Assembly (NCBI GenBank): GCA_016458225.1
Contig: JAEMGR010000010.1
Coordinates: 371,969-435,968, forward strand
Origin: Myxococcaceae bacterium JPH2
Lineage (GTDB): Bacteria; Myxococcota; Myxococcia; Myxococcales; Myxococcaceae
Reading direction: 5' to 3'
Length of the DNA: 64,000 nucleotides
Shown here one piece after another: positions 3,739-36,265 of the stretch. Numbering within the stretch: the first letter of the stretch is position 1; each line of letters opens with the position of its first letter. The notes below the pieces were generated by a model that worked only from the letters and a program-made list of their open reading frames with translations, was not told the origin of the DNA and did no database searches. Both the position numbers and the translations under genes were made by a program.

Positions 3739-3841
3739 GAATCCCCAAGGAAGTCGGGAAGTTGAGAGACCGGCCGAGCGCGTGTTACGACCCTCGGCCA
3801 GTCCCCCTCAAGCTTTCTTCCGTCTCTGGAGCCCGCTTCCC

Positions 3842-6800
3842 ATGAGCGAGAACAACGACGTCACGCGGCCCGCCCCTGCCGCGCCGCAGCGGCCCGAGTC
3901 TGTCCGGCCCGCCAGCGCGACCGAGGCGCTCGCCCAGGCGGTGACGACCCTTCCCGCGGCCACGCCCGCCAGCGTCGAGGACGACGCCCGGGAGCGCATC
4001 GCGTCGCTGGAGCGCGAGGCCAAGGCGGTCGCCTCGACGGATCCGCAGACCGCGTCGCTCCTCTTCCACGAGGTGGGCCTGCTCTGGGAAGAGCCGCTGA
4101 AGAACCCGCGCAACGCGGCGGTGGCCTTCCAGAACGCCTACAAGATGGCGCCCCGGTTCCTGGCCAACATCCGGGCCGCGCGCCGCCTCTTCGCGGACGT
4201 GGGCAACTGGCAGATGGTGGTGCAGCTCCTCGACGCGGAACTCATCGCCAGCGATGACGCCCGCCATCAAGCCGCGCTCCTCTACGAGAAGGGCGTCATC
4301 CAGGAGGAGCGCCTGTCGCGCGAGGCCGACGCGGCCGAGTCGCTGCGCCAGTGCCTGGAGCGCCGGCCCACGGACCTGGGCATCCTCACGCAGCTCGAGT
4401 CCGTCTATGCGTCGCGCAACGACGCCGCCGCGCTGGTGGAGGTGTACCGGCTGCTGGCCTCGGCCGTGGTGCCGCCGTCGCTGCGCGCGCACTACCTGAC
4501 GGCCGCGGGCCTGGTGATGGAGGAGCGCCTCAAGCAGCGCGAGGGCGCGGCCGCCCTCTTCCGCGAGGCGTTCGCGTTGGACCGCTCGGACGCGCTGCTG
4601 CTCGCCGCCGTCAAGCGTCTGGCCGAGCGCGAGGGGCGCACCGACGAGCTGCTCGCCGCGCTCGTGGCCGAGGCCGAGTCGCTGGGCACGCAGGCGGCTC
4701 CCGCGTACCTGCAGATCGCCAAGGTGTATGACCGCCTGGACCGCAAGGATGACGCCCTGGCGGCGCTCCTGGCCGCGCGGCGCGTGGGGCCCAACGAGCC
4801 GCTGGTGCTCAGCGCCCTGGCCGGCATCTACGAGACGCAGGGCCGCTTCGAGGAGCTGTCCGACGTGCTGCTCGCGTGGGTCGGATCCATCAGCGACGAG
4901 AGCGAGCTGGTCGCCATCAACCTGCGGCTCGCCGCGCTCTACGAGGACGACCTCAAGCGCGAGCAGGACGCGGCGGCGCGCTATCAGGCCATCGTCGCGC
5001 GCATCCCCGGCCACGCCGCGGCGCTCGCGGGCCTGGGCAAGCTGTACTACCGCATGCAGAACTGGGAGGGCCTCGTCGGCGTGTTCGACGCCGAGGTCAC
5101 CGCCGCCGAGGACGCCAAAGGCAAGGCCGCGCGCATGTACAAGGCCGCGGAGATCCTCGAGGAGCGCCTGGGCCGGCAGGAGGACGCCATCGCCCGCTAC
5201 AACGCGTGCCTCCAGTTGCAGCCCGGCTACCTCCCCGCGCAGAAGGCCCTCACCCGCCTCTACGAGCGCCAGGGTCGCTTCGCCGAGCTGGTCTCGATGT
5301 ACGAGCAGGACCTGCTCCAGACGAGCGATCGGGATCAGCTCATCACCACGCTCAACAAGATGGCGGTCATCTATGAGGACCGCCTGGGCGACCTGGACCA
5401 CGCCATCGAGTGCATGAAGCGCATCCTCGATCTCGCGTCGGATCACCTGCCCACCATCCGCAACCTCGCGCGCCTGCATGAGCGGGCGGGGCGCTACCGC
5501 GAGCTGCTGGAGACGCACGACCTGGAGGCGTCGCTGGCGGGCGACACCAAGCAGGTGCTGTCGCTGCTGCACCGCAACGCGGAGATCCTCGACGAGAACC
5601 TGAAGGACCGCGGCGGCGCCATCGTCGCGTACGAGCGCGTGCTCGCGCTGTCCCCCTCGTACCTGCCCGCGCTCAAGGCCCTGGGCCGGCTGTACGCGCA
5701 GGACACCCGGTGGGAGAAGCTCATCGACATGTACCGGGCGGAGTCGGAGATCTCTCCGTCCACCGAGCAGGCCGCCGCGCTCATCTACAAGATTGGTGAG
5801 CTGTACGAGCACCGGCTGAAGCAGGAGAACGAGGCCATCGCCTCGTACCAGGAGGCGCTGATGCTGGCGCCGAGCTACTTCCCGGCCCTGCGTGCGCTCG
5901 CGCGCATCTACCGGACGCATGGCGCCTGGGAGAGCCTGGTGGAAGTGCTGCGCGCCGAGGCCGCCAACCGCACGGATCCGTCCGAGCGCGCCAACGCCCT
6001 CTTCCAGGCCGCCGCCATCTGGGAGGATCAGCTCGCGCGGCCGGAGCTGGCCATCGAGGGCTACCAGGAAGTGCTGCGCCTGACGCCCGGACACGCAGCC
6101 ACGCTGCGCGCGCTGGAGCGCTTGTATGTGGCCCAGGACAACACCAAGGAGCTGGTCGCCGTGTTGGATCGCGCGACCCAGGTGGGCCAGACGCCGGCGG
6201 CCAAGGTGACGGCCTACCTGAAGCTGGCGCGGCTCTACCTGGATCGCTTCCAGGAGCCCGCACGCGCCGCGCAGTGCTGCGAGGCTGTGCTGAACCTGGA
6301 TCCGGGCAACCTGACGGGCCTGACGATGTTGGAGCGCATTCGCGCCTCGGACCGTCCGCGCCGCGCCGAGCTGCGGGGCCGCATCGCCGAGCGCGTCACC
6401 GACCCGCGCCTGTCCCACGCGCTGCGCCTCCTGGCCGCCGCGGACACCGACAAGGGCCCCACCGAGCGCACCGCCGAGGTGTATCAGCGCGCCTTCGACG
6501 CGGACCCCACGGACGCGCGCCTCGCCTTCGCGCTGGAGCGCGCCCTGCGACAAGCCGGCGACGCGGCGGGCCTGTCGCGCCTGTTCGCCATGCGGCTCGC
6601 CGTCACCACCGAGCCCACCGAGGCGCTGGAGCTGCTGCTGCGCGCCGCGGAGCTGGCGGAGGGCAAGCTCAACGACATCGCCCAGGCCTCCGCGCTCTAC
6701 CGTCAGGCCCTGGAGCTGCAGCCGCAGTGTCTGCCCGCGCTGCAGGGTGCACGGCGCGCGGCCCTGCGTCGCAATGACTTCGCGACCGCCCGCGCGGCCC

Positions 6801-8905
6801 TGGAGGCCGAGGCTCGCGCCAGCCGCGACCCCAAGAGCGCCATCGAGGCGTTCGTCGCCGCGGCGAAGCTGTCCGCCACCAAGCTGAATGACACCGACAC
6901 CGCCGCGGCGCTGTACCGGCAGGCCCTGGAGCGCGATGCCCTGCACCCGGGTGCGGCGGCGGGCCTGGAGGAGCTGCTCGCGCAGCGCGGCGGCTCGTCC
7001 GACCTGGCGGCCCTGCATGAGCGGCGCGCCGAGGCACGGCTGGCCCAGCGCGACAACGAGGCGGCCGCGGCGGCCTTCGTCACGGCGGCGCGGCTGCACA
7101 ACGTGGCGCTGGGAGATCGCTCGCGCTCGCTGGCGCTGCTGGAGCGCGCGCTGATCGCCAAGCCGGGCTACCCCGACGCGCTCGAGACGCGCGGGACCTT
7201 GCTGCTCGAGGCGCACCAGTACGCCGAGGCGGCGGTGATGCTCAGCCAGCGCGTGCAGCAGGGCGGGGATCCGCGCCTGCTCGCGCAGCACCACCTCACG
7301 CTGGGCGCGCTGTACCAGACGCACCTGGGGGATCCAGGCCGCGCGGCGGCGCACCTGCAGACGGCGCTGGGCACCCTGCCCCGTCACCCGGAGGCGCTGG
7401 AGCGACTCGCGACGGTCTACGCGCAGGGCCGCAACTACTCGGGCGCGGTGGACTGCCTGCGCAAGCTCCTGGAGCAGGACCTGCCGGCGGACGGACGCGC
7501 GCGCTTCACCATCGAGCTGGCGCGCATCCATGACGAAGGGCTGGGCGACGCGACGACGGCCACGCTCCTGTACCGCAAGGCGCTGGAGCTGACCCCGGGC
7601 GACGCGTCCCTGGTGGACAAGCTCGCCGTCCTCTACGAGCGGGCCCGCAACCTGCCGGAGCTGGCGCAGGTCCTCGAGGCGCAGGCGCAGCTCGCGGCGT
7701 CCACGGACCTCAAGCGGGCGCTCGTGTTGCGCGCTCGGGTGGCGGACCTGTACGCCGGGCCGCTGCAAGAGCCCGCGCGGGCCACGACGCTGTACCGGCA
7801 GGTGGTGGAGCTGGAGCCCACCAACCTCGCGGCGCGCACGGCCCTCGCGGACCTGTACGCCCGCGACACCACCAGCATCCCGCTGGCCATCGAGGAGCAC
7901 CGGCAGATCCTCCGGCAGGACCCCGTCCGGCTGGACAGCCTGCACGCGCTCTTCCGACTGTGGGAGGGCCTCAAGCAGCACGACAAGGCCTTCTGCGTCT
8001 CCGCCGTCCTGCAGTTCCTGCGCGGGGCCAACGAAGTGGAGATGGCCTTCTATGCCGAGGGCCGCAGCCGCCTGCCGCAAGAGGCGCGCGACCAGCTCAC
8101 CGAGTCGGACGTGGACACCGGCCTCATGCACCCCGCCGCGCGCGGTCCGCTGGTGGAGGTGCTCCGCGCGATGGGCGACCAGCTCAGCAAGGTGTATCCG
8201 CCGCAGTTCGAGATGCTCGGGGTCAACCCCAAGACGGACAAGCTGAAGGCGGACTCCGCGGTGGTGAAGGCCATCCGCGCGGTGGCGCAGGTGTTCGGCG
8301 TGGAGGAGTTCGAGGTGTACCAGGCCCGGCGCGGACTCATGCAGCCGGAGACGACCGAGCCCCTGTCCATCTGCGTGGGCCAGGACGTGGTGCGCCGCTT
8401 CAACGCGCGCGAGCAGAAGTTCCTCATCGGCAAGGCCGTGCTGGGCCTGATGAACAAGACCGCGGTGCTCACCAAGCTGTCCCAGGGCGAGACGGCGGAC
8501 CTGTTCGGCAGCGCCATCCGCGTGCACGCGCCGCAGTTCAGCGCGCTCGGTCGCAAGAACGACGAACTGGTGAAGCAGCTGCGCAAGGCCTTCTCGCGCA
8601 AGGCGATCAAGGCGCTGGAGGGACCCGCGCAGTCACTGGGTGATGCCCCGCGCGTCGACCTGCGCCCCGTGGTGGACGCGCTCGGATTCTCCGCGGACCG
8701 CGCGGGACTCCTGATGTGCGGCGATGCCTCGGTCGCGCTCACGCTGGTGCTGCGCGAGGACCCCAACTTCGCCGGAACGCGCCAGGACTCCACCGAGCCG
8801 CTGATCCAGGCCGTGCGCGAGCGCGAGGACCTGCGCACGCTGCTTGGCTGGGTGCTGACCGATGACTTCTTCCGGCTGCGCCAGCGGCTGGGCCTGGGCC
8901 TGTAG
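3842..8905 (+). CDS. Giant tetratricopeptide-repeat protein
   Basis: About 1687 residues from ATG 3842, which has GGAG about 12 bases upstream. The frame also opens at GTG 3782, so a start 20 residues earlier is possible. The N-terminal 60 residues are Pro/Ala/Thr-rich without a signal peptide. From about residue 60 to 1390 the protein is a solenoid of TPR-like helices. Its clearest unit is about 72 residues (two TPRs), with recurring P-x-Y-x-P-A-L-x-A-L-x-R-L-Y and W-E-x-L elements. The last 300 residues or so are not TPR. They form a separate domain with no HExxH, although the stretch around REQKFLIGKA loosely recalls degenerate peptidase-like domains. It is probably a cytoplasmic scaffold. 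No partner can be named. Confidence 0.85.
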   Translation: MSENNDVTRPAPAAPQRPESVRPASATEALAQAVTTLPAATPASVEDDARERIASLEREAKAVASTDPQTASLLFHEVGLLWEEPLKNPRNAAVAFQNAYKMAPRFLANIRAARRLFADVGNWQMVVQLLDAELIASDDARHQAALLYEKGVIQEERLSREADAAESLRQCLERRPTDLGILTQLESVYASRNDAAALVEVYRLLASAVVPPSLRAHYLTAAGLVMEERLKQREGAAALFREAFALDRSDALLLAAVKRLAEREGRTDELLAALVAEAESLGTQAAPAYLQIAKVYDRLDRKDDALAALLAARRVGPNEPLVLSALAGIYETQGRFEELSDVLLAWVGSISDESELVAINLRLAALYEDDLKREQDAAARYQAIVARIPGHAAALAGLGKLYYRMQNWEGLVGVFDAEVTAAEDAKGKAARMYKAAEILEERLGRQEDAIARYNACLQLQPGYLPAQKALTRLYERQGRFAELVSMYEQDLLQTSDRDQLITTLNKMAVIYEDRLGDLDHAIECMKRILDLASDHLPTIRNLARLHERAGRYRELLETHDLEASLAGDTKQVLSLLHRNAEILDENLKDRGGAIVAYERVLALSPSYLPALKALGRLYAQDTRWEKLIDMYRAESEISPSTEQAAALIYKIGELYEHRLKQENEAIASYQEALMLAPSYFPALRALARIYRTHGAWESLVEVLRAEAANRTDPSERANALFQAAAIWEDQLARPELAIEGYQEVLRLTPGHAATLRALERLYVAQDNTKELVAVLDRATQVGQTPAAKVTAYLKLARLYLDRFQEPARAAQCCEAVLNLDPGNLTGLTMLERIRASDRPRRAELRGRIAERVTDPRLSHALRLLAAADTDKGPTERTAEVYQRAFDADPTDARLAFALERALRQAGDAAGLSRLFAMRLAVTTEPTEALELLLRAAELAEGKLNDIAQASALYRQALELQPQCLPALQGARRAALRRNDFATARAALEAEARASRDPKSAIEAFVAAAKLSATKLNDTDTAAALYRQALERDALHPGAAAGLEELLAQRGGSSDLAALHERRAEARLAQRDNEAAAAAFVTAARLHNVALGDRSRSLALLERALIAKPGYPDALETRGTLLLEAHQYAEAAVMLSQRVQQGGDPRLLAQHHLTLGALYQTHLGDPGRAAAHLQTALGTLPRHPEALERLATVYAQGRNYSGAVDCLRKLLEQDLPADGRARFTIELARIHDEGLGDATTATLLYRKALELTPGDASLVDKLAVLYERARNLPELAQVLEAQAQLAASTDLKRALVLRARVADLYAGPLQEPARATTLYRQVVELEPTNLAARTALADLYARDTTSIPLAIEEHRQILRQDPVRLDSLHALFRLWEGLKQHDKAFCVSAVLQFLRGANEVEMAFYAEGRSRLPQEARDQLTESDVDTGLMHPAARGPLVEVLRAMGDQLSKVYPPQFEMLGVNPKTDKLKADSAVVKAIRAVAQVFGVEEFEVYQARRGLMQPETTEPLSICVGQDVVRRFNAREQKFLIGKAVLGLMNKTAVLTKLSQGETADLFGSAIRVHAPQFSALGRKNDELVKQLRKAFSRKAIKALEGPAQSLGDAPRVDLRPVVDALGFSADRAGLLMCGDASVALTLVLREDPNFAGTRQDSTEPLIQAVREREDLRTLLGWVLTDDFFRLRQRLGLGL

Positions 8906-29950: not shown

Positions 29951-31171
29951 TCAGTCCTGCACGCGCGCGCGCTCCACCAGCGCCTCCAACGTCTCCACGC
30001 ACGGCTCCTCGCGGACCAGCCCCTCGTCGGCCACGAAGGAGATGACCTCGCCGTCCTGGACCTCCAGGTACGCGAGCACCCCGTCCGCCTTCGACTCGGC
30101 CCAGAAGAGTCGCGGGCCCTCGGGCGGCGGGAGCTGCTCCGCGGCGCGCATCGCGAGCGCGCGCTGCGGGGCCTCCGCCAACAACTCGGCGCTGCTCAGG
30201 AAGTGGTAGCGCCCCAGCCGCAGTCCATCCACGCCCGCCAGGAAGCGCCGCAACGCGGATGGCAGCGCCCAGCCCCAGCGAGCCTCGATGCTGGCGAGGT
30301 TCGCCTCGCTCGCGCCCTTGAAGGGCGTCCGCGTGCCCGAGGGGCGCAGCTTCGCGAGCATCTGCGTCCAGTCCTCGCGAGCCAGTGAGAACACCTGCAC
30401 GGGGATGCCGGTGAACGGATTGATGACGTCCGTCACTTCAGCGCGCGGCGGCGCGAGCACCTCCGCGGGCCACTCCACCTCGCGGCGTCCGGCCAGCGCC
30501 ACCCGCTCGTGGTGACGGAAGCGCGAGCGGAAGCGGCGATCCTCTCGCACCGTGTTGAAGTCCACGCCCTCCGGCTTCAGCAGCCCCGCGGTCTCCGCCA
30601 GATAGAGATCCAGCCCCGGGTACAGCACGGCCAGGAGCGGCTGATCATCGATGTCCGTGTAGAGCACCGGGTAGTCCCCGGCCGCGTCGGGCTCGGAGGT
30701 GAGCACGTAGACCCGCCGCGTGTCGGAGCCTCCCGGCAACAGGAACGCGTGCGACATCGTGGGCACCGCGAAGTACGGCGACCACGCCACGTCACGCGGG
30801 CCGGAGGACTCCGAGTCATCCAGCTCCGGAGGCGGTTGGCCGTCCATCTCGGGTGAGGGCTCGCCGTCATATTCGGCGCGGGCGATCTCCTGGAGCGAGC
30901 GCGGCGTCCAACGAAAGGTGGGCTCCAGCTCGAACCAACCCCAGTGCGCCAGGAAGCCCGCGTCGAAGGCGAGCCACGTCCGGAGCGAGGGCGGCAGGGG
31001 CGCGCCCTGGGGCAAGGTGAGCGACGCGAGCACGTCGGCAGGGAGCGGGCGGAACAGCGGAGCTTCGGGCCGGTAGCGGTCGAAGGTGTCGAGCGCCTTC
31101 CAGCCTCGGGCGCGAACGACCTCGATGACCTTTTCGACCCACTTCACGCTCTCCGTGCGCGGCTCGGCCAT
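29951..31171 (-). CDS. SMI1/KNR4 (SUKH)-like protein
   Basis: 406 residues from ATG 31171. The segment around IEARWGWALPSALRRFLAGVDGLRLG (positions about 290-320) matches the SMI1/KNR4 pattern, in which an acidic or aromatic helix is followed by LP-x-x-L-R-x-F-L. An earlier stretch near 50-80 (PPSLRTWLAFDAGFLAHWGWFE) may be a second degenerate copy. No signal peptide or membrane segment. SUKH domains occur as immunity proteins of polymorphic toxins and in other cellular roles. No toxin gene is adjacent, so immunity cannot be claimed. The family assignment is fair and the role is open. Confidence 0.6.
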   Translation of the reverse strand: MAEPRTESVKWVEKVIEVVRARGWKALDTFDRYRPEAPLFRPLPADVLASLTLPQGAPLPPSLRTWLAFDAGFLAHWGWFELEPTFRWTPRSLQEIARAEYDGEPSPEMDGQPPPELDDSESSGPRDVAWSPYFAVPTMSHAFLLPGGSDTRRVYVLTSEPDAAGDYPVLYTDIDDQPLLAVLYPGLDLYLAETAGLLKPEGVDFNTVREDRRFRSRFRHHERVALAGRREVEWPAEVLAPPRAEVTDVINPFTGIPVQVFSLAREDWTQMLAKLRPSGTRTPFKGASEANLASIEARWGWALPSALRRFLAGVDGLRLGRYHFLSSAELLAEAPQRALAMRAAEQLPPPEGPRLFWAESKADGVLAYLEVQDGEVISFVADEGLVREEPCVETLEALVERARVQD

Positions 31172-31295
31172 GGGCGGAAACCTACAACACGGCGCTTCGC
31201 CACCTCCAATGGAGACAGGCAAAGGAGCGCTGCTCCGCCGCTGTCGGTCCCAACACATCCGTCACGCGCGAACGCGGCATGCGCGCACACCTTGC

Positions 31296-31346: not shown

Positions 31347-31757
31347 ATGAGCACCCCGACCGCGCGCGACGAGCGCGACTATTACGAGCGCATCTACACG
31401 GTCTGCGAGCAGGTCCCTCGCGGGCAGGTGTCCACCTACGGCGACATCGCGACCATCGTCGGTGACGGCTGCGATGCGCGCATCGTGGGGCACGCCATGG
31501 CCGCGCTGGGTGCTCGCGCGGCGACCTGTCCCTGGCAGCGGATCATCAACCGCACGGGTGGCATCAGCACCTCGGGCTACGGCCAGAAAGAGCGACTCGA
31601 GGAAGAAGGCGTGGGCTTCGATGAGAAGGGCCACGTGCTCATGAGCGCGCACCAGTGGGCCGGCCCCACCGAGGAGTGGACCCGCGCGCGCGGCTTCCAA
31701 CCGCTGCCGCCCAAGACGCCACAGGGCGGGCCGAGCACTCAGCTGTCGCTGTTCTGA
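31347..31757 (+). CDS. atl: Alkyltransferase-like protein (ATL), MGMT family without the acceptor cysteine
   Basis: 136 residues. It resembles the DNA-binding domain of O6-alkylguanine-DNA alkyltransferase: GQVSTYGDIA near 31-40, ARIVGHAMAAL and then CPWQRIINRTGG. In MGMT the active site is PCHR; here the acceptor position is Trp (PWQR), as in the Atl proteins. ATLs bind alkylated guanines and flag them for nucleotide excision repair, without repairing them directly. GGAGG lies five bases before the ATG. A 26-residue C-terminal tail beyond the domain is Pro/Gln-rich. It is a single gene with its own likely promoter. Confidence 0.88.
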   Translation: MSTPTARDERDYYERIYTVCEQVPRGQVSTYGDIATIVGDGCDARIVGHAMAALGARAATCPWQRIINRTGGISTSGYGQKERLEEEGVGFDEKGHVLMSAHQWAGPTEEWTRARGFQPLPPKTPQGGPSTQLSLF

Positions 31758-31850: not shown

Positions 31851-34079
31851 ATGCCAGTTGTTCCGTCCGTCCTGGATGCGGTCACCGTTCACGCGGAGGG
31901 AGCGCTGTGCACCCGCCTCCTCTCCGTCCCCAGCGAGGGAGGCCAGTTCCCCGCGGAGGTGAGGGTCGAAGGACTGCCCCTGTCGCTGCGTGTCGGCTCG
32001 CTCCGAGCCCGCGTGGTGGAGGGCCCCCCGGGTCTCGTCGTGCGTGGCATCCAGCCGCTCTTCGACGTGCGGCTCCCCACCGAAGCGGATCTCCCCGCCG
32101 AGCGCCACGCACTGGAGCGCGCCGAGCGTGCGCGGACCGACGTGGGCGCCCGCCTGGAGCAGACGCGGCGCGACATCCAGGTGCTGATGGAGCTGAAGCC
32201 CACCGCGCTCCCGAACCGCAAGGGCGAGCCACCGCGCCAGACGCCCCTGACGGCGACGCTCGCGCTCGCGGAGTTCGTGGACACGGAGCTGACCGCGCTG
32301 AATCAGCGGCGGCTGGAGCTGGAGCGCGAGGAGCGCGACGCCCTGGCCGAGCTGGAGCTTCGCCGCGCGCGGATCCGCGAGCAGTCCGGCGCCGCGCGAG
32401 GCCAGCGCGCCCAGCTCTACCGCGCGGCGGTGCTGTCACTGGCGGGCCCGCTGACCTCGGAGGGCCCGGCCCGGATCGCGCTGGAGTACGCCGTCACGGG
32501 CGCGCGCTGGGTGCCCACGTATGACCTGCGGCTGCCGCGCTCGTTGCAGGACGGCACGCTGCGCATGCGCGCCTCGGTGCTCCAGCTCACGGGCGAGGAC
32601 TGGAGCGGCGTGCGCCTGTCGGTCTCCACCGCGGACCTGGAGCGACGCGCGGAGGTGCCCGAGCTGAAGGCGCTGCGCATCGGCCGCAGCCAGCCGCCTC
32701 CGCCTCGCTCGGGGTGGCGCGAGCCGGCCGCGGGATTGGACGAGCTGTTCGCTGGCTATGACAGCGCCCCCCCACCCGTGAGCCCGCGAAAGCCGATGTC
32801 GCCTCCCGCGGCGCCCAGGAACATGCCGGACCTTCGGGTCGGCGGAAACGCGGCGCCGCGCGACGAGCCTTCAATGGCCTCCTCCTCCGGAGCCGTGGAC
32901 GGCGCGATGCCCGTTCCACCGCCGCCCCCGCGTGCCCCGGCGCCCGCGGGAGCCAGGCCCTCCGCGGCGCGTCCCTCGGTTCCCGCAGCGTCCATTGCGC
33001 CGGCATCCGCACGCGGCGGTGGACTGATGCGCTCCCAGGAGAAGAGCAAGAAGCGCAGCGCCGAGCCCGCGCCCAAAGAGCTGCTCATGGATGAGGACGA
33101 GCCGAGCTTTGGCGGAGCGCCCGAGATGGCCTTCGACGAGGAGGGCGGCGCGCCCGCCCCGAGCCAGGACCTCGCGGAGCCTCGGGTGGAGGTCTCCGAG
33201 TCGCTGCTCGACTATCAGCAGCTCACGCTGATGTCGGCCGAGGTCCCGGGTGCACGCGGCCGCCTGCGCCCGCGCCCCGCGGACGCCTCGCGCGAGTTGC
33301 TCGCGCTCACGGCGGTCCGTGTCCAGGTCGACGTCGTCACCCTGCTCGCCACGCAGGAGCAGCGGGCACGCGGCATCCACAGCGTGCCGGCGCCCACGTG
33401 GACCGTCCCCCCGCGCGAGTCCGCGCAGCAGTTCGACGCGCGCTTCGACGTGGAGGCACGCGCGGAGGTGCCGTCGGACGGCGCGTGGCACACGGTGCCC
33501 CTGCTCGCGGTCCCCGTGGGGCTCGTGGCCGAGTACCTCTGCGTGCCCTCGGTGGAGCCCCGCGCGTTCCGCACCGTGCGCATCGAGAACCGGACCACCT
33601 ACCCGCTCCTCGCCGGCCCGGTGGACGTGACGCTCGGCGAGGAGTTCCTGATGACGTCTCCCCTGCCCACCCTGGCGCCGGGCGCGACGCAGCGACTGGG
33701 CCTGGGCGTCGAAGAGGCCATCAAGGTCGCGCGCAACACCCGCTTCGACGAGGCCTCGGGCGGCATGTTCGGCGGCAACACGCTGCTCACGCATCAAGTC
33801 CTCGTCGACGTGGCCAATCGGCTCGGCCATCGGGTGACGCTGGAGGTGCAGGAGCGGCTGCCCGTCGTTCCTCCCTCGGAGAAGGACATCAAGGTCGAGG
33901 AGGCCGAGGTGGCGCCCGGCTGGCAGAAGCGCGCGTTGCTGCCCGGCGAGACGGTGGTGGAAGGAGAGCGGGCGTGGCGCGTGGCGCTCCAGCCCGGTGA
34001 GTCGCAGACGCTGAAGGCCACATGGACCATCAAGATTCCCGCCGCGAAGATGCTCGACGGCGGCAACCGGAGGACCTGA
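31851..34079 (+). CDS. DUF4139 (MuiA-like) protein, first of a tandem pair
   Basis: 742 residues from ATG 31851, preceded by GAGGGGG. The N-terminus (about 1-90) fits DUF4140 and the rest fits DUF4139, as in 'mucoidy inhibitor A' homologues. A coiled coil at about 85-195 (Arg/Glu/Leu-rich) separates them. A long Pro/Ala/Ser-rich insert lies at about 285-430, with a basic patch near 400, inside the beta-rich domain. There is no signal peptide, so it seems cytoplasmic. It overlaps the second DUF4139 gene by one base (TGATG), which implies translational coupling. No biochemical function is established for the family. Confidence 0.85.
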   Translation: MPVVPSVLDAVTVHAEGALCTRLLSVPSEGGQFPAEVRVEGLPLSLRVGSLRARVVEGPPGLVVRGIQPLFDVRLPTEADLPAERHALERAERARTDVGARLEQTRRDIQVLMELKPTALPNRKGEPPRQTPLTATLALAEFVDTELTALNQRRLELEREERDALAELELRRARIREQSGAARGQRAQLYRAAVLSLAGPLTSEGPARIALEYAVTGARWVPTYDLRLPRSLQDGTLRMRASVLQLTGEDWSGVRLSVSTADLERRAEVPELKALRIGRSQPPPPRSGWREPAAGLDELFAGYDSAPPPVSPRKPMSPPAAPRNMPDLRVGGNAAPRDEPSMASSSGAVDGAMPVPPPPPRAPAPAGARPSAARPSVPAASIAPASARGGGLMRSQEKSKKRSAEPAPKELLMDEDEPSFGGAPEMAFDEEGGAPAPSQDLAEPRVEVSESLLDYQQLTLMSAEVPGARGRLRPRPADASRELLALTAVRVQVDVVTLLATQEQRARGIHSVPAPTWTVPPRESAQQFDARFDVEARAEVPSDGAWHTVPLLAVPVGLVAEYLCVPSVEPRAFRTVRIENRTTYPLLAGPVDVTLGEEFLMTSPLPTLAPGATQRLGLGVEEAIKVARNTRFDEASGGMFGGNTLLTHQVLVDVANRLGHRVTLEVQERLPVVPPSEKDIKVEEAEVAPGWQKRALLPGETVVEGERAWRVALQPGESQTLKATWTIKIPAAKMLDGGNRRT

Positions 34080-35635
34080 TGCACGCGCCCCGCTCCCTGC
34101 CCGTGAGCAAGGTGACCTTGCTGGAGGACCGCGCGCTCGTGGAGCGCCGTGGCGAGGTCACCCTCTCTCCAGGCGCCCAGAAGCTCGTCATCGAGGGACT
34201 TCCTCGCGTGGCGGTGGACCGCTCGATTCAAGCCAGGCTGTCCGGTGGAGTCGTCGCCCAGGCCCGACTGCGACGGGTGACGCGGCCTCAACCTCCCGAG
34301 GCTGAACGGGTGCTGCGCACCGAGCTGGAGCGGCGCGTGGCCTCGCTGCGCGAGGAGCAGGCACGGCGCGCGGCGGACGTGCAGCGGCTCATCGTCAAGC
34401 AGGGCCTGCTACAGACCGCGCGCGCGGATGTGTACCGCGCCATCTCGGAGCAGACCGGCGTGGGCGATGCCCATCCCGTCACGTGGCGCGAGCAGCTGGG
34501 ACTGGCCCGCGAGCAGCTCGACGCGGTGGAGGCGCAGCTCCGCGAGGCGCGGCGACGCGAAGAGGCCGCGACCCACGAACTCAGCGAGGCCCAGCGCGCG
34601 GCGGCGCAGGCGCTCCAGCCCGAGCCGAAGCTGGACACGCTGGCCGAGCTGGAGGTCAACCACCCCTCCGGTGGAGCCGCCACGTTGACACTCACCTATC
34701 TGGTGCCCTGCGCGGCCTGGCGCCCGGCCTACCGCGCCACGCTGCGCGCCACGGAGACCGGCGAGCAGGTGACGCTGGAGTGCGAGGCCGTGGTGTGGCA
34801 GCACACCGGAGAGGATTGGAAGGACGTGGCCCTCACGTTCTCCACCGCCCGCCCCACGCTCGGCGCGACGCCGCCTCGACTCACCGAGGATTGGATCTGG
34901 CTGCGCGACAAGTCCGAGCGCGAGAAGCGCGTCGTGGACGTGTCGGTCCGCGAGGAGGTCATCCAGACAACCGGCGAGGCGGGCCGCTCGCGACAGCCGG
35001 ACTCACTGCCTGGCATGGACGACGGCGGCGAGGCGCTCACCCTGGCCGCGCCGCACCCGGCCCAGGTGCTCTCGAATGGCGAGCCGCACCGAGTCCCGCT
35101 GCTGCAGTTCACGGCGCCGGCCCGCTCGGAGCTGGTGGCCTGCCCGGAGCAGTCGCCCCTGGTGCACCGCGTGGCGCGCTTCGAGAACGTGGGACCCGCG
35201 GTCCTGCTCGCGGGCCCGGTGGACCTGGTGCGCTCCAGCGGCTACGTGGGGCGCGCGCAGCTGAAGTTCACCGGACGCAACGAGCACGTGAAGCTGGGCT
35301 TCGGCAGCGAGGACGCGCTGCGCATCGCCCGACGGGTGGAGGAGTCCGAGGAGACGCGGATGCTCACGAGTCGCCGCACGCGCACCCACAAGGTGAAGCT
35401 CTTTGTCTCCAACATGGGCTCGCGTCCGGAGTCCCTGGCCCTGGAGGAGCGCATCCCTGTGTCCGAGGTGGCCGCCGTGGAGGTCGCGCTGGTGAAGGAC
35501 TCAGCGCAAACCCCGCCCACACGCGTGAGCGAGGAAGGCATCGTGCGCTTCGAGTTGAAGGCAGACCCTCGCTCGCAACAGACCCTGTCGTTCAGCTACA
35601 CCGTGGCCAGCTCGGCCAAGGTCGCTGGACTCTAG
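34079..35635 (+). CDS. DUF4139 (MuiA-like) protein, second of a tandem pair
   Basis: 518 residues. The layout mirrors the upstream paralogue: an N-terminal DUF4140-like domain opening with VSKVTLLEDRALVERRGEV, a coiled coil at about 75-185, then DUF4139 with the conserved Y-x-V-P-C/A-A-W-R-P-x-Y segment near 215-225 and WKDVALTFSTARP. It lacks the long Pro-rich insert. The two proteins are clearly related but distinct, suggesting an old duplication and perhaps a heteromer. The start overlaps the stop of its neighbour by one base. A beta-barrel-like gene follows after 18 bases. Confidence 0.85.
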   Translation: MHAPRSLPVSKVTLLEDRALVERRGEVTLSPGAQKLVIEGLPRVAVDRSIQARLSGGVVAQARLRRVTRPQPPEAERVLRTELERRVASLREEQARRAADVQRLIVKQGLLQTARADVYRAISEQTGVGDAHPVTWREQLGLAREQLDAVEAQLREARRREEAATHELSEAQRAAAQALQPEPKLDTLAELEVNHPSGGAATLTLTYLVPCAAWRPAYRATLRATETGEQVTLECEAVVWQHTGEDWKDVALTFSTARPTLGATPPRLTEDWIWLRDKSEREKRVVDVSVREEVIQTTGEAGRSRQPDSLPGMDDGGEALTLAAPHPAQVLSNGEPHRVPLLQFTAPARSELVACPEQSPLVHRVARFENVGPAVLLAGPVDLVRSSGYVGRAQLKFTGRNEHVKLGFGSEDALRIARRVEESEETRMLTSRRTRTHKVKLFVSNMGSRPESLALEERIPVSEVAAVEVALVKDSAQTPPTRVSEEGIVRFELKADPRSQQTLSFSYTVASSAKVAGL

Positions 35636-35653
35636 ACTCGCTTCGGAGAAGAC

Positions 35654-36265
35654 ATGCTGCTGTTCCCCTTGATGATGGTGCTCGCGCAGGCCCCCGTGAT
35701 GGAGGACCTGCCTCGCGCGGGCCTGTTTGGCGCGGGATTCAACATGGAGCCCGTGTCCATCGGCCCCATGCAGGCCTTCACGCGGTACGGCAGCGTGCAG
35801 GGCGCCAGCCTGTCCACGGGCGTCCAGATTGACCTCGGCACGCGCTGGGCTCTGCGCATCCACCTGGAGGGCGCGGGCGCGGCGAGCACGGACGTGAACT
35901 TCGCGGAGTTCGGCCTGGCGCCGGGCATCCTGTACCGCTGGCGAGACACCGCGGATCAGCGCTGGGTGCCCTACGGGGGCGCGGGCCTCAAGTTCGGCGG
36001 CGTGGGCGCCAGCCGAGGCATCCTGGGCCTCGAGTCGGCGGCCGTCAGCGCGATGGACTTCGACTGGGACGACTTCGACGACAACAACTCGAACCCGGAT
36101 GAGGAGACGCGGTTCGGCACGTTCCCCGAAGTCTTTGCAGGCGTGGAGTGGCACCCCAATCGCTGGTTCGCGCTCACCATTCACGGCTCGTACACGTACG
36201 CCCGGCTCGTCCACACCAACGTGCACATGTTCCAGGAGCGCGTGGGCGTCCGCTTCTCGCTGTAG
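35654..36265 (+). CDS. Outer-membrane beta-barrel-like protein
   Basis: 203 residues. A short signal-like stretch (MLLFPLMMVLAQA) is followed by alternating aromatic/Gly strands. Features typical of small outer-membrane barrels are visible: YRWRDTADQRWVPYGGAGLKFGG, the strand FALTIHGSYTYAR, and a C-terminal strand ending in VRFSL. An acidic loop DFDWDDFDDNNSN near 136-148 may bind divalent metal. GGAG lies upstream of ATG 35654. It follows the DUF4139 pair by 18 bases and is probably in the same transcript. It ends six bases from a convergent gene. The specific function is unknown. Confidence 0.7.
   Translation: MLLFPLMMVLAQAPVMEDLPRAGLFGAGFNMEPVSIGPMQAFTRYGSVQGASLSTGVQIDLGTRWALRIHLEGAGAASTDVNFAEFGLAPGILYRWRDTADQRWVPYGGAGLKFGGVGASRGILGLESAAVSAMDFDWDDFDDNNSNPDEETRFGTFPEVFAGVEWHPNRWFALTIHGSYTYARLVHTNVHMFQERVGVRFSL

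What the first reader, a model, noticed from the sequence alone, without database searches (positions are those of the whole stretch)
31851..36265. Tandem DUF4139 paralogues followed by a beta-barrel protein
Two related DUF4140-DUF4139 proteins share a one-base stop-start overlap, and a barrel-like protein follows by 18 bases. The first has a long Pro-rich insert. No function is known for the family, and this set may form a heteromeric envelope-linked unit.
Basis: partly seen in the sequence, partly recalled or inferred. Interest (0 to 1): 0.5.

Follow-up and report, generated by a model that had tools for sequence, protein, structure and literature searches.

The report
Inseparable cytoplasmic DUF4139 protein pair
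Two sister proteins of unknown function, encoded head-to-tail in a soil myxobacterium, belong to an old pair that appears to be inherited, duplicated and moved between compartments together in very different bacteria, which points to one two-part machine inside the cell; the neighbouring barrel-protein gene looks like a bystander.

Summary
A (31851-34079) and B (34079-35635) are DUF4140-DUF4139 paralogues overlapping by one base (TGATG), A has a 147-residue Pro/Ala-rich insert, and a barrel-like gene C follows B by 18 bases.

The three-gene envelope unit is not supported. C has homologues in 11 of 92 family genomes and lies beside A-B in 2, both of this genus. C looks secreted; A and B show no signal peptide here or in orthologues.

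The two-gene part is supported, more strongly than proposed. A->B order recurs across Myxococcota, in 41 of 41 DUF4139-bearing genomes of Kitasatospora's order (147 searched), and in SZAS-1's order. A and B trees mirror each other, so whole pairs were duplicated. In 71 of 75 pairs both partners or neither have a signal peptide. No third gene stays with them. This genome holds three pairs, two secreted and one (the window's) cytoplasmic. Cytoplasmic pairs carry matched signatures (A GGNRR end, B PGxDDGG loop).

Best reading: an obligate, translationally coupled heteromeric cytoplasmic scaffold, an internalised, duplicated relative of secreted MuiA. The papers searched gave no description of the pair.

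The parts
31851..34079 (+). Gene A: long DUF4140-DUF4139 subunit, 742 aa, no signal peptide seen
32658..32762 (+). A: conserved segment PELKALRIGR..SGWREP..GLDELFAGYD (aa 270-304) at the left edge of the insert, also found in Streptomyces pairs
32763..33203 (+). A: Pro/Ala-rich low-complexity insert (aa 305-451, 147 residues) inside DUF4139
   Evidence: a CarboxypepD_reg domain lies at this position in the two secreted A paralogues of this genome
34059..34076 (+). A: C-terminal GGNRRT signature of the cytoplasmic pair
34077..34081 (+). TGATG stop-start overlap of A and B (probable translational coupling)
34079..35635 (+). Gene B: short DUF4140-DUF4139 subunit, 518 aa, no signal peptide seen (a longer in-frame ATG at 34022 adds no hydrophobic leader)
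34295..34615 (+). B: region of the predicted long antiparallel coiled-coil hairpin (helices aa 73-127 and 133-179)
   Evidence: AlphaFold2 model
34859..35038 (+). B: loop aa 261-320, more conserved than the protein average but mostly unconfident in the monomer model; holds PGMDDGGE (35009-35032)
35654..36265 (+). Gene C: outer-membrane-barrel-like protein, 203 aa; beside A-B only in this genus, judged not part of the unit

Best explanation
A and B are the two non-interchangeable subunits of one obligate heteromeric complex in the cytoplasm, made from a translationally coupled two-gene message. By the model of B, each subunit is a DUF4140 beta domain, a long antiparallel coiled-coil hairpin and a DUF4139 beta-rich part. 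The partners probably meet through the DUF4139 loops at the insert position (the conserved loop of B that the monomer model does not fold confidently, and the conserved IGR...GYD segment of A) and possibly through the hairpins. The Pro/Ala-rich arm of A then projects as a flexible tether that recruits other factors. The complex is probably a non-enzymatic scaffold, the internalised counterpart of secreted MuiA-type proteins that respond to envelope stress. Shown: gene order, co-inheritance of the pair, its split into secreted-type and cytoplasmic-type classes by sequence, the signatures, the predicted monomer of B. Inferred: physical heteromer, interface, tether role, scaffold and stress function. 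C is a bystander.
For: (1) Order. Among the rows listed (67 Myxococcota genomes, list truncated), 57 of 75 match clusters hold two or more adjacent same-strand DUF4139 matches and 18 are single; by eye one of the 57 (G125:C434) is only the two halves of one A, and four of the 18 are parts of two further pairs (G127, G135). In the order of Kitasatospora 41 of 147 genomes have the family and 41 of 41 have exactly one A->B pair. In the order of SZAS-1, 6 of 15 genomes have over-cut-off matches, read by eye as 8 A->B pairs. (2) Autonomy: the most widespread other neighbour cluster reaches 12 of 59 loci in the cytoplasmic set (A/B: 56), 4 of 22 in the Streptomyces set (A/B: 21) and 2 of 24 in the secreted set (A/B: 24). 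(3) Mirror trees: A and B are each one side of a branch over 37 pairs (support 60 and 94); 27 of 34 splits shared, path-length correlation 0.986. In a 12-pair tree both halves have support 97 and the same topology, and separate duplication in the two classes is rejected (AU p 0.0087). (4) Same compartment: of 75 pairs, 53 have no signal peptide on either partner and 18 on both by a crude rule; 4 are discordant. (5) Matched signatures: A GGNRR and B DDGG both present in 70 of 70 distinct cytoplasmic-type pairs, both absent in 20 of 21 secreted pairs, both present in 12 of 16 scored pairs of the 20 Streptomyces-order loci. (6) The B loop 259-320 is more conserved (0.69) than the protein mean (0.64) in 28 rows, while its 10-residue pLDDT blocks are 34-55, and 71 at its end. 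(7) Stop-start distances in the cytoplasmic pairs are -4 to +5 bases, one +8 (L018).
Against: With 8 single-copy relatives added, the AU test no longer rejects separate duplications (p 0.091), the A branch has weak support in the large tree (60), and the tested grouping was named after the larger tree had been seen. Mirror trees also arise from shared vertical inheritance without contact. A conserved but unconfident loop may bind something other than A, or only reflect a shallow alignment. Single DUF4139 genes exist: 14 of the 75 clusters by my reading (some of them fragments), two Opitutales loci (L027, L028) and the P. aeruginosa, Bosea and Ruegeria genes. The stress role is carried over from a secreted single-gene relative whose reported phenotypes conflict.
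Confidence: 0.7

Rival explanations
1. Three-gene envelope unit: A, B and the barrel C act together at the outer membrane.
For: C follows B by 18 bases on the same strand here and follows B in the one same-genus relative. In 4 loci of another genus (L030, L031, L033, L034) a different secreted, by eye barrel-looking protein also follows B.
Against: C is in 11 of 92 family genomes and adjacent in 2, against window-type B (45% identity or more) in 75 of 92 (hand count; two more by short partial matches). The other barrel-looking protein has no detectable similarity to C; the one copy scanned has no Pfam match. A and B show no signal peptide. The same pair exists in monoderm Streptomyces.
Confidence: 0.04
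2. A and B are functionally linked but do not bind each other: two homomeric proteins kept together for dosage or co-regulation.
For: P. aeruginosa MuiA and other relatives are single genes, so a subunit of this family can exist alone. No contact data exist.
Against: Exactly one A->B pair in 41 of 41 genomes of Kitasatospora's order, apart from A fragments on another contig in three; matched, class-specific signatures in both proteins; signal-peptide status agrees in 71 of 75 pairs; trees indicate that whole pairs, not single genes, were duplicated.
Confidence: 0.2
3. B (or A) is an enzyme or transport adaptor rather than a scaffold: the beta / coiled-coil hairpin / beta layout recalls membrane-fusion adaptors such as MacA and EmrA.
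For: Foldseek lists EmrA (8zar_D E 0.022, prob 0.97; 8zal_A E 0.026), a chain of a MacAB-TolC entry (9qgy_G E 0.0077) and MacA (3fpp_B E 0.045). VIA-align Z 9.2-11.5 in the 50 rows shown, covering the hairpin.
Against: No Foldseek match at E <= 0.001; the structural matches cover the coiled coil, a common arrangement (note). Invariant columns are mostly aromatic, Pro and Gly with single Q, N, R, T or E positions and no evident catalytic set (my reading). A cytoplasmic location does not fit a periplasmic adaptor.
Confidence: 0.06

Closest known systems
MuiA (mucoidy inhibitor A) of Pseudomonas aeruginosa, TIGR02231 family
   Same: Same DUF4140-DUF4139 family; A and B pass the TIGR02231 cut-off. 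Reported as overexpressed after osmotic shock and D-cycloserine and tied to swarming and biofilm (PMC10418997, PMC7603352, passages).
   Different: The muiA gene in record NZ_CP131792.1 stands alone, has a signal peptide by eye and lacks both signatures. The window proteins are a cytoplasmic-type pair and A has a long Pro-rich insert.
The two secreted-type A-B pairs of the same genome (contigs C3 and C23)
   Same: Same two-gene order, long A and short B, homologous partner by partner.
   Different: Signal peptides on both partners; a CarboxypepD_reg domain sits in A at the insert position; no GGNRR or PGxDDGG signature.
A-B pairs of Kitasatospora's order, e.g. the two adjacent 'DUF4139 domain-containing protein' genes on a Streptomyces sp. 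NBC_01001 linear plasmid (L171)
   Same: Cytoplasmic-type pairs with a Pro-rich insert and the IGR..GYD segment (found by one pattern in 14 of 21 A proteins) and both signatures in 12 of 16 scored pairs. L171 itself was read only from its annotation.
   Different: Monoderm host, exactly one pair per genome, no widely shared neighbours.

Membership tests
MuiA family protein (NCBIfam TIGR02231) | Score above the curated cut-off of 112.6 bits | tested here: met
   A 197.8, B 262.5
MuiA family protein (NCBIfam TIGR02231) | DUF4140 followed by DUF4139 | tested here: met
   A and B above Pfam gathering scores for both domains; 43 of 43 and 38 of 38 alignment members match both at E up to 5
MuiA sensu P. 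aeruginosa | Secreted, single gene | tested here: not met
   A and B show no signal peptide and are a tandem pair, unlike the gene in L170
MuiA sensu P. aeruginosa | Inhibits mucoidy or alters swarming and biofilm | not testable with these tools
   Needs mutants
Cytoplasmic A-B pair (defined here) | Adjacent A then B, no signal peptides, A ends in GGNRR, B holds PGxDDGG | tested here: met
   the class was defined on these same data, so this is description, not an independent test
Obligate heteromer | A binds B | not tested
Outer-membrane beta-barrel OMP_b-brl (gene C) | Pfam PF13505 gathering score 28.7 | tested here: not met
   25.0 bits, E 2.5e-5, below the cut-off; called 'barrel-like' only
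Membrane-fusion adaptor (MacA, EmrA) | Shared overall fold | tested here: inconclusive
   Only the coiled-coil hairpin aligns

The most novel reading that the evidence does not exclude
A conserved intracellular two-subunit assembly, unrecognised so far, shared by myxobacteria, streptomycetes and SZAS-1-like bacteria (large genomes; that several are multicellular is recalled). It arose when a secreted, duplicated MuiA-type pair lost both signal peptides together and gained matched interface signatures and a disordered recruiting arm.
Probability: 0.4. Interest if true: 0.65.

Novelty: new variant of a known kind. Interest (0 to 1): 0.45.

Why it matters
It turns a 'domain of unknown function' into a testable two-part system. 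Anyone studying one DUF4139 protein in these bacteria should delete or purify both partners, and should not expect envelope localisation for the cytoplasmic class. It also gives sequence signatures (A GGNRR, B PGxDDGG) that separate cytoplasmic-type from secreted-type pairs in annotation, and a clear candidate case of two paralogues changing compartment together.

Tried and rejected
Barrel as third member: rejected. The ATL-like gene upstream (31347-31757) as a member: it is a neighbour in only some myxobacterial loci (8 of 59 in the cluster count). The 17-9-7 gene string upstream in the 45-48% subgroup (DnaJ-like by eye, HEAT-repeat by Pfam, Cys-rich with no Pfam match): present in part of that subgroup only. 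Defence role: no PADLOC match at E up to 0.1 for A, B or C. Sequence relatives among solved structures: for B three weak matches (E 0.11-0.12) to chains named MakA, VCA0883 and an Nhe component, for its profile mainly coiled-coil matches, best E 0.008; not taken as kinship. Fold search of the B model: no match at E <= 0.001; the top row was a yeast oligosaccharyltransferase chain (8agb_E, E 0.005, prob 0.30) and many aminopeptidase chains followed at higher E; VIA-align rows cover the hairpin. This does not show a new fold, and the beta domains were not folded alone. Literature: full-text searches for DUF4139, MuiA/mucoidy inhibitor, SbrI/SbrR/PA1494, TIGR02231/DUF4140/PF13598/PF13600, MuiA+alginate, MuiA+Myxococcus, F37C4.5, PA1494/mucoidy/periplasm and CHP02231 gave no paper on the tandem pair in the listings and passages I saw; the largest of these listings were capped and only the open library was searched. 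PF13598 in PMC11166925 is named there as a histidine-kinase domain (passage), which looks like an accession slip; not used. C. elegans F37C4.5 passages (PMC4131143, PMC6470173) and a Leishmania table row (PMC11203134) gave no function; that F37C4.5 belongs to the family is recalled.

Full 79-row AU test: not finished in two runs; a 24-row version was used (p 0.0087) and a 32-row version with single genes gave p 0.091.
Full report
What is there. The window carries, on the + strand, A (31851-34079, 742 aa), B (34079-35635, 518 aa) and C (35654-36265, 203 aa). A and B overlap by one base in TGATG and C starts 18 bases after B. Both A and B hold DUF4140 and DUF4139 above the Pfam gathering scores and pass the MuiA-family cut-off; they are paralogues. 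C is a barrel-like protein, secreted by the look of its N-terminus, whose Pfam match is below the cut-off. The long insert of A (aa 305-451) is 46% Pro, Ala and Gly.

Three pairs in one genome. The window's own genome has six DUF4139 genes in three tandem pairs: the window pair, one on contig C3 and one on C23. The two others have signal peptides on both partners and a carboxypeptidase-regulatory-like domain in A where the window A has its Pro-rich insert. The insert site therefore looks like an exposed, tolerant loop.

Gene neighbourhood. In the loci that hold enough sequence upstream of B, A lies directly upstream of B, except in two Opitutales loci (L027, L028), which have a single gene. 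A search of 92 family genomes for C found it in 11: adjacent in 2, on the same contig about 1.6 Mb away in 2 (G017, G027), on another contig in 6, and in G001, which has no window-type B. Window-type B (45% identity or more) is in 75 of the 92 by hand count, with two more short partial matches. Clustering of neighbouring ORFs gave, as the most widespread neighbour other than A/B, 12 of 59 cytoplasmic-set loci, 4 of 22 Streptomyces-set loci and 2 of 24 secreted-set loci; the ORF calling was heuristic. In 4 loci of another genus a different barrel-looking gene follows B. The unit is two genes.

How far the pair extends. One search covered 67 Myxococcota genomes, 49 with matches, and its place list is truncated. 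Of 75 match clusters in that list, 57 hold adjacent same-strand matches and 18 are single. By eye, one of the 57 is only the two halves of one A, and four of the 18 are the parts of two more pairs; some singles are fragments. In the order of Kitasatospora 41 of 147 genomes have the family and 41 of 41 have exactly one A->B pair; three have an extra A fragment on another contig. In the order of SZAS-1, 7 of 15 genomes match at E <= 0.001 and 6 over the cut-off, read by eye as 8 pairs, with two further places below the cut-off. The relatives in P. aeruginosa, Bosea and Ruegeria records are single genes with signal peptides by eye.

History. In a tree of 37 pairs and 5 single genes, the A rows form one side of a branch (support 60) and the B rows another (94). 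The two halves mirror each other: 27 of 34 splits shared, path-length correlation 0.986; within cytoplasmic and secreted sets 0.981 each, against best values of 0.506 and 0.91 in 2000 permutations. In a 12-pair tree both halves have support 97 and the same topology, and independent duplication in the two classes is rejected (AU p 0.0087), with the caveat that the grouping was named after the larger tree was seen. With 8 single genes added the same test gives p 0.091, so the shared duplication is favoured, not proven. On this reading the later spread was by whole pairs.

Compartment. A crude N-terminal rule on 75 pairs gave 53 without and 18 with signal peptides on both partners, and 4 discordant ones (L103, L116, L121, L125), which on inspection I put down to start choice, the rule's length limit or a borderline score. 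The 75 include at least one genome twice. By this evidence the window-type pair is cytoplasmic, also in Streptomyces.

Signatures. Cytoplasmic-type A proteins end in GGNRR and B proteins hold DDGG, mostly as PGxDDGG: both in 70 of 70 distinct cytoplasmic-type pairs outside the 20 loci. Among secreted pairs 20 of 21 have neither; one (L135) has a DDGG match in another context. Of the 20 loci, 16 were scored and 12 have both, the others lacking one or both, some with close variants such as DGNRR; 4 were not scored because my ORF calling missed a partner. The segment IGR..Q....SGWREP..GL..LF.GY at the insert edge was found in 40 of 64 cytoplasmic-type A and 14 of 21 Streptomyces-set A by one pattern; the misses were not examined further.

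Structure. AlphaFold2 on B with 43 aligned sequences gave mean pLDDT 85.4, pTM 0.64: a beta domain, a coiled-coil hairpin (73-127, 133-179) and a beta-rich C-terminal part. Blocks from 261 to 310 have mean pLDDT 34-55, yet residues 259-320 are more conserved than average among 28 cytoplasmic-type rows (0.69 against 0.64). A segment that is conserved but does not fold confidently alone is what one expects of a partner-binding loop; this is inference. Foldseek found nothing at E <= 0.001 and VIA-align rows cover the hairpin.

Mechanism. I commit to an obligate A-B heteromer in the cytoplasm, translationally coupled, acting as a scaffold with the Pro-rich arm of A as a recruiting tether. Against enzymatic function: the invariant columns are mostly aromatic, Pro and Gly with no evident catalytic set. 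A role in stress or surface behaviour is borrowed from secreted MuiA. A review reports that the sigma factor SbrI promotes muiA transcription, that SbrI activation inhibits swarming and enhances biofilm, that SbrI and MuiA are overexpressed after osmotic shock and D-cycloserine, and that the original alginate-inhibitor role should be re-evaluated (PMC10418997, passages). A proteome study lists MuiA as more abundant in biofilm and cites knock-outs for its swarming and biofilm roles (PMC7603352, passages). The primary paper was not held.

Verdict. Observation confirmed. Interpretation half right: pair yes, barrel and envelope no. A new variant of a known kind, of moderate interest, readily testable.

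Noticed in passing
L171 2835-6542 (Streptomyces sp. NBC_01001 linear plasmid): The A-B pair sits on a 666-kb plasmid typed as mobilizable; with the Streptomyces pairs nested among cytoplasmic-class pairs in the tree this suggests horizontal spread.
   Followed up: partly
L042-L045, L098-L101: In one group of relatives A and B are in the same frame, separated only by a TAA stop directly followed by a GTG start; readthrough would give an A-B fusion.
   Followed up: partly
L030 3272-4015, L031, L033, L034: In another genus a different secreted, barrel-looking protein follows B on the same strand, without detectable similarity to C; the copy scanned (L030) has no Pfam match.
   Followed up: partly
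window 29951-31258 (-): 435-aa protein with a SUKH-1 (SMI1/KNR4) match in its C-terminal half, possibly an immunity-type protein.
   Followed up: no
window 31347-31757 (+): Alkyltransferase-like (MGMT DNA-binding domain only) protein upstream of A; a neighbour in some relatives.
   Followed up: partly
window 3782-8905 (+): 1707-aa protein with many TPR matches.
   Followed up: no
G149 and G150: Several frames of about 800 aa match only about positions 1-55 of DUF4139 weakly; possibly a further, divergent branch of A-like proteins.
   Followed up: no
L170 4411-6066: muiA lies among chromosome-type metabolic genes on an 847-kb P. aeruginosa record labelled as a conjugative plasmid.
   Followed up: no
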